DNA of 53,030 bases from Mycobacterium sherrisii (lineage in GTDB: Bacteria; Actinomycetota; Actinomycetes; Mycobacteriales; Mycobacteriaceae): NCBI RefSeq assembly GCF_002102355.1, contig NZ_LQPT01000111.1, forward strand, positions 1 through 53,030, written 5' to 3'. This document shows, piece after piece, positions 592 through 2,225 of the stretch (its first letter is position 1; every line of letters starts with the position of its first letter). Both the position numbers and the translations under genes were made by a program. The notes below the pieces were generated by a model. That model made no database searches. It was not told where the DNA came from and saw only the letters and a program-made list of their open reading frames with translations.

Positions 592-2151
592 TCAGCCCGC
601 GCCGTTCTCCGGGTCCCAAGTGCCAGGGACCATCGGCAGGCTGGGCCCGCCACCGAACTCGTCACCGGCGAGGGTGGTCAGACCCGCGGCCGTGGCGGGT
701 CGCGTTGGAGCGGTGCCGACAAAGCCCTGCTTCCCGGCGCCGTGATCGGAGGCCGTCACCGCTGTCTCTTGCCAGTCGGGGTCGACGCCGACAGTTATGT
801 CCAGATACTCCTCGCCATGCCCGCGCTGCCGCGCTTTACGGCGCCGCCAGGCACGCGCCGCCTCTCGTGCCGCCGCGCCGGTTACCGCAGCGGACGAATC
901 CAGTTCCGGCGCTTTCCTTTTCGCTGCCGCACTGCCGCTCAGGCCTGAGCCGAACCCGACGCCCGGCGGCGCGATGGCGTAGGGCGGCGCGAAACCGGGC
1001 CCGGCGGGTGACGCCGGCGCGGCCGCACTGGACCCGGTGCTCGCCGAAGCGGTCGGGGTGGATGCCGGCGCCGACGCGGGAGCCGCGCCCGGCGCGGTGA
1101 TCGACGCCAAACCGGGCGCGGCTGGCAGGCTCGCCGCCGCCGCAGCGGGCGGGGGCGGCGGAGCCAAGGGCGCCGCGGAGGGCGCCAGCGCGGCCAGGCC
1201 CGCTAAGCCACCCAGCGCGCCGAGCGGGGCCACGGCCAGCAGCGCCGGAACCAGGAACAGCTGCGGCTGCAGCGGCAGCCAGCTGCCGAGTTGGGCCAGA
1301 TGCGTCGGCCAGTCGAACAGCATGAGGTTGGTGATGAACTGAAACGCGGCCGCCGGGTTTTCCTGCAACAGCGACCCGAATTGTTGGAAGTCCGAGAACA
1401 GTTCCAGCGCCCGTGCCACCCACCAGAGCAGGTCGCCCGGATTGGAGTAGGCCTCGTACGGCAGGCCGTTGAGCGTCCCCTCGACCGGATCCCATTCGAT
1501 ACCGAACAGGCGCAGAATCTGCGCGACCAACCGATTGAGCGGGCTGTCGAATCCGTGCTCGTGATCGTGGTGGTCGTCGTCCTCGTGTTCGTGTTCGTGT
1601 TCGGGTGCGGCGTCGAATCTCAAGATCTGCGGCACCGGCTCGGCCCGCGGCGTGGCCGCTAGGGCCGCCGTGGCGACGGCGTCATATGTCGCCATGGTGC
1701 CGGCGGCCTGCACCCACATCCGGGCATAGTCGGCCTCGTTCACGGCGATCGGAATCGTGTTGACGCCAAAGAAATTCGTCGCGACCAGCGCGCTGTGGGC
1801 CGCGTGGTTGGCCGCCAGCTCCGCGAGCGTCGGCATCGCAGCGAGCGCGCAGGTGTAGGCCGTGCCCGCCGCCTCGTGCTGCGCGGCCGCCGCGGCGCTT
1901 CGGGCGCCGGCCTGAGCCAACCACGCCAGGTACGGGGCGTGCGCGGTGGCGTAGGACTCTGCAGCGTGCCCCTGCCATGCGTCGGCCTGCGCCGAGGCCA
2001 CCAGGGCGGCGAGTTCTGCTGCCGCCGCATGGTATTCGGTGCTCATCGCGCTCCACGCCGCGGCCGCGGCGAACAGCGATCCCGGGCCCGGTCCGCTGCT
2101 CAGCAACGCCGAATGCACCTCCGGCGGGAAGGCCAGCCAGGTAGGTGCCAT
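592..2151 (-). CDS. PPE family protein with histidine-rich insert, PPW subfamily
   Basis: A PPE protein of 519 residues, the class secreted by ESX type VII systems. The N-terminus carries PPEVHSALLSSGPGPGSL and the WxG-type turn (DAWQGHAAES) of the PPE domain, up to about residue 175. At about residues 184-199 comes a run rich in His, Glu and Asp (EHEHEHEDDDHHDHEH) that is not part of the normal PPE fold and looks like a zinc or other metal ligand. An Ala/Pro-rich linker follows. The C-terminus has a basic patch (AWRRRKARQRGHG) and the PxxPxxW signature (PMVPGTW). I chose ATG 2151 over GTG 2163 because the GTG lies inside the AGGAGGTG ribosome binding site. A Zur-like palindrome lies 50 bases upstream, so I infer that it is made in zinc starvation and may bind zinc outside the cell. 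Confidence 0.9.
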   Translation of the reverse strand: MAPTWLAFPPEVHSALLSSGPGPGSLFAAAAAWSAMSTEYHAAAAELAALVASAQADAWQGHAAESYATAHAPYLAWLAQAGARSAAAAAQHEAAGTAYTCALAAMPTLAELAANHAAHSALVATNFFGVNTIPIAVNEADYARMWVQAAGTMATYDAVATAALAATPRAEPVPQILRFDAAPEHEHEHEDDDHHDHEHGFDSPLNRLVAQILRLFGIEWDPVEGTLNGLPYEAYSNPGDLLWWVARALELFSDFQQFGSLLQENPAAAFQFITNLMLFDWPTHLAQLGSWLPLQPQLFLVPALLAVAPLGALGGLAGLAALAPSAAPLAPPPPPAAAAASLPAAPGLASITAPGAAPASAPASTPTASASTGSSAAAPASPAGPGFAPPYAIAPPGVGFGSGLSGSAAAKRKAPELDSSAAVTGAAAREAARAWRRRKARQRGHGEEYLDITVGVDPDWQETAVTASDHGAGKQGFVGTAPTRPATAAGLTTLAGDEFGGGPSLPMVPGTWDPENGAG

Positions 2152-2202
2152 CGGGATCGGCACCTCCTCGGCGTTAGCGGGCTACGGACTCACCGAACAT
2201 AA

Positions 2203-2225
2203 TTGAAAACGATTGTCGTTCTCAA
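2203..2225 (-). promoter_or_regulatory. probable Zur (FurB) operator of the PPE gene
   Basis: A 23-bp palindrome, TTGAAAACGATTGTCGTTCTCAA on either reading direction apart from two pairs (9 of 11 arm pairs match). It fits the mycobacterial Zur box as I recall it (TGAAAAyGATTnTCrTTTTCA type). It lies about 50 bases before the PPE start codon, where a repressor would cover the promoter. Zur control of ESX-3 and some PPE genes is established in M. tuberculosis; control here is inferred. Confidence 0.75.

What the first reader, a model, noticed from the sequence alone, without database searches (positions are those of the whole stretch)
592..2225. Histidine-rich PPE protein behind a Zur box: a candidate zinc-scavenging PPE
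Seen: a 23-bp palindrome with 9 of 11 matching arm pairs at 2203-2225, placed at the promoter of a PPE gene whose product carries an extra His/Asp/Glu run (EHEHEHEDDDHHDHEH) right after the PPE domain. Known: Zur represses ESX-3 and some PPE genes in M. tuberculosis, and His/Asp runs bind zinc in many uptake proteins. Inference: a secreted or surface PPE that captures zinc in starvation. The gene stands alone, without ESX or metal transporter genes, so it would be a new regulon member.
Basis: partly seen in the sequence, partly recalled or inferred. Interest (0 to 1): 0.8.

Follow-up and report, generated by a model that had tools for sequence, protein, structure and literature searches.

The report
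Zinc-controlled PPE protein, histidine-rich linker
A mycobacterium carries an extra copy of a zinc-starvation PPE protein, apparently switched by the zinc repressor Zur, with a histidine-rich linker that may catch zinc; the regulation is well supported by sequence, the zinc capture is still a guess.

Summary
A PPE-PPW gene (592-2151, minus; alternative start 2163) carries EHEHEHEDDDHHDHEH (aa 184-199) in a flexible linker after the PPE domain. The 23-bp palindrome lies on its only promoter-like site. As a palindrome it is ordinary (33 such in the window), but against 17 published Zur boxes it scores 24.4 bits; one random 5.56-Mb genome peaks at 18.0. Other boxes in the genome precede cobW genes, L31, ESX-3, an ABC transporter and two more PPE genes.

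It is not an isolated novelty: it is a moved paralogue of PPE3, a known Zur-regulon PPE. Of 79 named relatives, 54 have a Zur box upstream; only 11 of these have a dense His run, so the box is the constant and the run the variable. The window copy and ten close relatives keep the run while codons drift.

New here: relatives show a series box-PE-PPE, box-uORF-PPE, box-PPE, as if a PE5-like partner gene shrank to a coupled uORF or vanished. Most likely: Zur-repressed PPE, exported by ESX-3 with PE5 in trans, with a zinc-binding linker; export, partner and zinc binding are inferred.

The parts
592..2151 (-). PPE-PPW gene, PPE3-type paralogue (519 aa from ATG 2151; 523 aa if GTG 2163)
1651..2139 (-). 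PPE helical domain (PF00823); nearest solved chain is PPE4 of the PE5-PPE4-EspG3 complex
1555..1602 (-). His/Asp/Glu run EHEHEHEDDDHHDHEH (aa 184-199), in a linker predicted disordered (pLDDT below 50 at 180-198)
1282..1545 (-). second folded region, aa 203-290, helices and short strands, block means of pLDDT 76-89
616..756 (-). PPW C-terminal region (PF18878), contains PMVPGTW = PxxPxxW
2203..2225 (.). Zur-type box, palindrome TTGAAAACGATTGTCGTTCTCAA
2196..2225 (-). sigma-70-like promoter TTGAGA-18-TATGTT, -35 and spacer covered by the box; only such site found in 550-2450 (0.1 expected)
2436..2510 (-). tRNA-Met (CAT), neighbour; one edge of the variable slot in which the PPE gene sits
80..568 (+). 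glutathione-peroxidase-like gene (name by recall), other edge of the slot; a like gene stands there in relative G001

Best explanation
The gene is a relocated paralogue of the Zur-controlled PPE3 gene. With zinc present, Zur (this genome has a Fur-family gene beside an smtB-like gene) sits on the box, which covers the -35 hexamer and spacer, and shuts the promoter; in zinc starvation the promoter opens together with ESX-3, cobW, L31 and an ABC transporter. The protein, whose PPE domain is closest to PPE4, is exported by ESX-3 as a heterodimer with PE5 supplied in trans, since no PE gene is left in front of it. At the cell surface its flexible His/Asp/Glu linker binds Zn(II) and raises zinc capture. 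Supported by sequence: PPE3-type membership, box, promoter geometry, absence of a PE, ESX-3-like PPE domain. Inferred: Zur binding, export route, partner, zinc binding and its benefit.
For: Box score and genome-wide rarity; promoter under the box, with TTGnnn-N16..19-TAnnnT in 39 of 54 boxed relatives. Boxed genes in the same genome: four cobW, L31, eccA3, a region with an ABC ATPase, two further PPE genes. An smtB-like gene (by eye) beside the best Fur-family hit. In MAP, PPE MAP3737 (listed as Rv0280-like) rises 75-fold on zinc depletion and has two predicted Zur boxes, and mutating Zur box 3 of mptA ended repression (PMC4298942). PPE domain 65% identical to PPE4 of the ESX-3 complex, against 38% (PPE15) and 29% (PPE41) for ESX-5 chains; a review proposes that PPE-PPW proteins depend on ESX-3 (PMC7028111). 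PE5-like PE genes stand between box and PPE in some relatives. His run kept in the window copy and ten close relatives, with synonymous codon changes.
Against: The window box is the weakest of the three own PPE boxes (24.4 against 28.9 at C70 and 40.7 at C93). 43 of 54 boxed relatives lack a dense His run, and the own PPE3-place copy C70 has no His in the linker. Box and run are only weakly associated per locus (Fisher p = 0.09), and loci are not independent. Of 15 box places whose genes I looked at, three have no obvious target, and five further places were not looked at. The genome has five FUR-domain hits, and a Fur-like regulator of MAP binds a related box (PMC7192006), so another regulator could act. 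A 2026 study links M. tuberculosis PPE3 to growth on lactate and other nutrients and proposes ESX-5 export (PMC13102306). Zinc depletion by TPEN also induces iron genes (PMC8121289; mbt genes in PMC4298942), so induction by TPEN is not strictly zinc-specific.
Confidence: 0.5

Rival explanations
1. Zur-controlled PPE3-type nutrient or permeability factor in which the linker is only a flexible acidic spacer; the histidines are drift or tune charge, not zinc ligands.
For: The linker is acidic in boxed rows (median 8 Asp+Glu in 50 aa against 5 in rows counted as boxless) while His varies from 0 to 9. M. tuberculosis PPE3 mutants grow poorly on lactate and other nutrients (PMC13102306).
Against: The core DDHHxHxHG is kept in 10 of the 11 sequences read (the eleventh has DHDHEGHDHG) while codons change; dense runs also occur in M. 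asiaticum, M. gordonae, Mycolicibacter and M. kyorinense rows, though the number of separate origins was not tested.
Confidence: 0.3
2. The box is read by another Fur-family protein (an iron or manganese Fur-like one, or the Fur-family protein encoded near the ABC transporter at C93), so the signal is not, or not only, zinc.
For: Five FUR-domain hits in the genome: besides the one near an smtB-like gene, one lies near an ABC permease-like gene on C93, one near a catalase-peroxidase-like gene, one near a nickel/cobalt-transporter-like gene (names by recall). A MAP Fur-like protein binds a related 19-bp box (PMC7192006).
Against: The boxed companions in this genome (cobW, L31, ESX-3) resemble the zinc-starvation set of MAP (PMC4298942).
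Confidence: 0.12
3. The copy is a decaying duplicate in a variable slot: its weak box and lost leader mean little or no expression.
For: Weakest of the three own PPE boxes; position between a peroxidase-like gene and tRNA-Met, where relative G001 carries unrelated genes.
Against: Intact 519-aa frame, kept linker core and PPW tail, promoter-like site and SD in place.
Confidence: 0.08

Closest known systems
PPE3 (Rv0280) of M. tuberculosis and MAP3737 of M. avium ssp. paratuberculosis
   Same: Zur-regulated according to PMC13102306 (which cites Maciag 2007, not held) and PMC4298942. In this genome the copy at the PPE3 place is C70: 63% identical to the window protein and boxed
   Different: The window copy is off the ESX-3 side, has a dense His run and no uORF; C70 has an acidic linker without His. 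The M. tuberculosis and MAP proteins themselves were not fetched, so their linkers were not compared
PPE4 with PE5 and EspG3 (ESX-3)
   Same: PPE domain 65% identical, same fold; PE5-like genes precede some boxed relatives
   Different: PPE4 lies inside the ESX-3 locus behind PE5; the own PPE4-like protein has no His in the linker
PPE2 (Rv0256c) of M. tuberculosis
   Same: PPE-PPW type (recall); its translation depends on a short uORF with an AUGA overlap (PMC11260477, passages), an arrangement also seen here in relatives
   Different: PPE2 is under a B12 riboswitch; none reached gathering score in the window or in 11 relatives searched, 8 boxless and 3 boxed
His-rich zinc-binding loops of zinc uptake proteins (ZnuA, ZIP, COG0523; by recall)
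   Same: Alternating His/Asp/Glu run
   Different: Different fold and export route; no zinc binding shown here

Membership tests
PPE-PPW subfamily | N-terminal PPE domain | tested here: met
   PF00823, 195 bits, cut-off 26
PPE-PPW subfamily | PxxPxxW motif near the C-terminus | tested here: met
   PF18878, 58.8 bits, cut-off 27; PMVPGTW in the translation
PPE-PPW subfamily | Export through ESX-3 with EspG3 (proposed for the group) | not testable with these tools
   Only similarity to PPE4 of PE5-PPE4-EspG3
PPE3 orthologue | Place between the MPAB/Lcp-TetR side and methyltransferase-eccA3 | tested here: not met
   C70 has the MPAB/Lcp-TetR side (its other side is a contig end), as do many boxed relatives; the window gene lies between a peroxidase-like gene and tRNA-Met
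PPE3-type clade (as paralogue) | Falls within the boxed PPE3-type group in a tree | tested here: met
   7-row clade 100/100; 14-row boxed group with the own C70 copy 96/98; the wider 49-row group has 93/90
Mycobacterial Zur regulon | Zur box in the promoter | tested here: met
   24.4 bits, 1 mismatch to the published consensus, on the promoter-like site
Mycobacterial Zur regulon | Zinc- and Zur-dependent expression, Zur binding | not testable with these tools
   Needs bench work
Zinc-binding proteins | Measured zinc binding | not testable with these tools
   Only the His/Asp/Glu run
B12-riboswitch PPE2 type | Cobalamin riboswitch in the leader | tested here: not met
   Only a tRNA reaches gathering score in the window; the genome's three RF00174 hits, two over the cut-off, lie on other contigs

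The most novel reading that the evidence does not exclude
The Zur-boxed PPE3 type is a family of mostly PE-less zinc-starvation surface proteins born from a PE5-PPE4-like pair. Its own PE gene decayed behind the Zur box into a short coupled uORF and then vanished, so that the PPE must share the Zur-controlled PE5 of ESX-3, while the linker after the PPE domain evolves as a tunable metal-binding arm (acidic to His-rich) and extra copies move to new sites. The coupled uORF in front of M. tuberculosis PPE2 would be another such PE remnant.
Probability: 0.3. Interest if true: 0.75.

Novelty: new variant of a known kind. Interest (0 to 1): 0.55.

Why it matters
How mycobacteria bring zinc across the outer membrane is open, and I know of no zinc-binding ESX-3 substrate (recall, not searched exhaustively). 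A His-rich PPE under Zur, with a sister copy in the same genome whose box core differs by one base and whose linker has no histidine, gives a natural test pair. The PE-to-uORF series offers a simple origin for PPE genes without PE partners and perhaps for coupled uORFs such as that of PPE2.

Tried and rejected
Palindrome as evidence by itself: rejected, 33 equal ones in the window. Cobalamin-riboswitch control as in PPE2: none in the window nor in 11 relatives searched. I chose those 11 as boxless, which looked only 350 bp upstream; L009, L017 and L027 among them later proved to have a box in front of an upstream PE gene, so one search covers 8 of the 25 loci that stay boxless; the other 17 were not searched. 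Box-run association as independent proof: weak (p = 0.09) and confounded by descent; its table counts L047 and L053 as run-less, though their reading frames are too short to judge the linker. The linker comparison (median His 2 against 0, p = 3e-6) used 72 of 84 rows; 12 were dropped because the PPEV/PPEI anchor was missing; it counted L009, L017, L027 and L068 as boxless; and the rows are related. The tree left out L047 and L053. Structure: mean pLDDT 63, only the PPE domain and about aa 203-290 are confident; the nine PDB matches at E <= 0.001 are all PPE domains. Literature: PMC4298942 passages and section 8 part 1; passages only of PMC7174638, PMC7192006, PMC11260477, PMC7058343, PMC13102306, PMC7028111 and PMC8121289; of PMC3796483 one passage from its reference list; others as search listings; the Maciag 2007 Zur paper is not held.

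Full report
What is there. The window is contig C111 of a 5.56-Mb, 128-contig genome. On the minus strand at 592-2151 lies a 519-aa PPE protein (523 aa from the GTG at 2163) with a PPE domain and a PPW C-terminus. The run EHEHEHEDDDHHDHEH is aa 184-199. AlphaFold places it in a disordered linker (pLDDT below 50 at 180-198) between the PPE helices and a second folded region at about 203-290; most of the rest is of low confidence.

The box. The 23-mer 2203-2225 has 9 of 11 paired arms, which the window shows 33 times. Scored with a matrix of 17 of 19 published MAP Zur boxes (MAP3737 left out) it reaches 24.4 bits; one simulated genome of the same size peaks at 18.0. It covers the -35 hexamer and spacer of TTGAGA-18-TATGTT, the only promoter-like site in 550-2450, 0.1 expected. 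With the published consensus at up to one mismatch the genome has 27 strand hits against 2 for the reversed control pattern. By my count these are 20 places, and I looked at the genes of 15. Boxes lie before four cobW genes (C19, C23, C89, C15; two boxes each at C23 and C89), a ribosomal L31 gene (C19), eccA3 of ESX-3 (C89), a region with an ABC ATPase (C93), and PPE genes at C93, C70 and C111; C19:53626, C28 and C73 have no obvious target. The five places not looked at are C19:93869, C38, C78, C99 and C104. By this pattern three of the genome's 41 PPE genes have a box directly upstream. The best Fur-family hit lies near an smtB-like gene, the usual zur place (gene names by eye and recall).

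What it is. The closest own paralogue is C70 (63% identity), with the nearest box in the genome. C70 shares its upstream neighbours (an MPAB/Lcp protein, a TetR-like and a glyoxalase-like gene) with the loci in which many other species keep a boxed PPE, often followed by a methyltransferase-like gene and eccA3. MAP work lists MAP3737 as the counterpart of Rv0280 (PPE3), 75-fold up on zinc depletion, with two Zur boxes (PMC4298942). So C70 holds the PPE3 place and the window gene is a paralogue elsewhere. In a tree of 84 rows the window protein sits in a 7-row clade (100/100) with L010 and L012-L016, from M. colombiense and unnamed-species Mycobacterium records. None of these six shows the ESX-3-side neighbours in the DNA held; L010, L013 and L015 end soon after the PPE. 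L012, L014 and L016 share their downstream DNA; in L012 and L014, whose ORFs I read, the PPE is followed on the same strand by a HAD-type and a glycoside-hydrolase-like gene (by eye). These look like the Rv3400-Rv3401 pair (recall), whose MAP counterparts MAP3491 and MAP3492 rise 22- and 10-fold on zinc depletion. In the window the gene lies between a peroxidase-like gene and tRNA-Met; in relative G001 the same interval holds TetR, P450 and SDR-type genes instead (names by eye), so this is a variable slot.

Box and His run across relatives. 54 of 79 have a box of at least 20 bits within 480 bp upstream of the PPE match; elsewhere the same 852 kb holds 38 sites, 18 of them 210-250 bp before the eccA3 match. 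39 of 54 share the promoter geometry. A dense run (4 or more His in 16) occurs in 12 of 79: 11 boxed and L051, which has no detected box but only 314 bp upstream. Two of the 79 (L047, L053) are too short to judge. 43 boxed loci have no dense run. The box is thus the constant trait and the run a variable one. Among the window copy, its six clade mates and four further unnamed relatives (L175-L178, not in the tree), the core DDHHxHxHG is kept in 10 of 11, L178 having DHDHEGHDHG, and codons vary, which argues against a mere slippage repeat. In 60 genus members searched, 15 including the own genome have a match at E <= 1e-130; of the 20 match loci outside the own genome, 18 have a box of at least 20 bits.

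PE erosion. In 4 of 54 boxed named loci (L009, L017, L027, L068) and in two unnamed ones (L187, L193) a full PE gene of 101-104 codons stands between box and PPE; these six PEs are 62-77% identical to the PE before PPE4 in the own ESX-3 locus. PE5-like genes also precede boxless PPEs (L063, L077, L079, L083, L085), as expected of an old pair. L061 has a 76-aa PE. In 10 of 54 (L010, L012-L016, L036, L049, L052, L057) only a uORF of 11-21 codons is found; L052 (VTLLVVP), L057 (VTLRIV) and boxless L051 (MTLRVV) still resemble the PE start MTLRVVP, the others less (MTLP, MALP, MKMP, MKLQ, MMLQ); I made no statistical test of that likeness. In all 10, and in L051, the uORF stop overlaps the PPE start by 4 nt, as the full PE does in L017, L187 and L193 but not in L009, L027 and L061. 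In L044 the start MTLP runs in frame into the PPE. In the other 38 of 54 the script found no uORF behind an SD, and the window gene is of this kind; C70 keeps a uORF of 18-19 codons that ends one base before its PPE start. A coupled uORF with AUGA overlap is essential for PPE2 translation in M. tuberculosis (PMC11260477); in the passages read it is not called a PE remnant, and that link is my inference. Literature searches: histidine-rich + PPE protein + zinc + mycobacteri gave one paper, on the copper channel MctB, seen as a listing; PPE + Zur + histidine-rich + ESX-3 gave none; PE gene + PPE + uORF + translational coupling gave two, neither holding 'PE gene'. The library is open-access only.

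Mechanism. Zur repression in zinc sufficiency, opening in starvation with ESX-3 and an ABC transporter, export by ESX-3 with PE5 in trans, linker binding zinc at the surface. The export guess rests on 65% identity to PPE4 (38% to ESX-5 PPE15) and on the review that ties PPE-PPW to ESX-3 (PMC7028111). Against it, a 2026 study proposes ESX-5 export and a lactate role for PPE3 (PMC13102306). Zinc binding is inferred from composition alone. I put Zur control at about 0.9, PPE3-type membership at about 0.95, zinc capture at about 0.45.

Verdict. A new variant of a known kind: a His-rich, moved, PE-less member of the Zur-controlled PPE3 type.

Noticed in passing
window 568-2510 and L173: The interval between the peroxidase-like gene and tRNA-Met holds different cargo in the window (PPE) and in relative G001 (TetR, P450, SDR-type genes): a variable slot.
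   Followed up: partly
L143:446-4886 (own contig C35): Another PPE gene of the PPW kin is followed by a FecCD permease, an ABC ATPase-like gene and a periplasmic binding protein: a PPE in a likely metal or cofactor uptake operon.
   Followed up: no
L012 and L014 about 7700-10900 (L016 shares the DNA): The His-rich PPE copy lies directly upstream of HAD- and glycoside-hydrolase-like genes resembling a pair that is zinc-starvation induced in MAP.
   Followed up: partly
L136 and L149 (own contig C93): A boxed PPE gene, a boxed ABC transporter region and a second Fur-family gene lie within about 7 kb.
   Followed up: partly
window 27931-28024 (-): ARAGORN calls a tRNA-Leu inside a long ORF; Rfam at gathering score does not. 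Probably a false call.
   Followed up: no
G000 C89:288-515: A PPE C-terminal fragment with a stop lies at the contig start, upstream of a boxed cobW gene and ESX-3: possibly a broken or assembly-cut PPE copy.
   Followed up: no
window PPE protein, about aa 405-445: A basic stretch (KRKAPEL...WRRRKARQR) is partly predicted as a low-confidence helix and resembles the consensus of the alignment; PPE2 is said to carry a nuclear localisation signal (recall).
   Followed up: no
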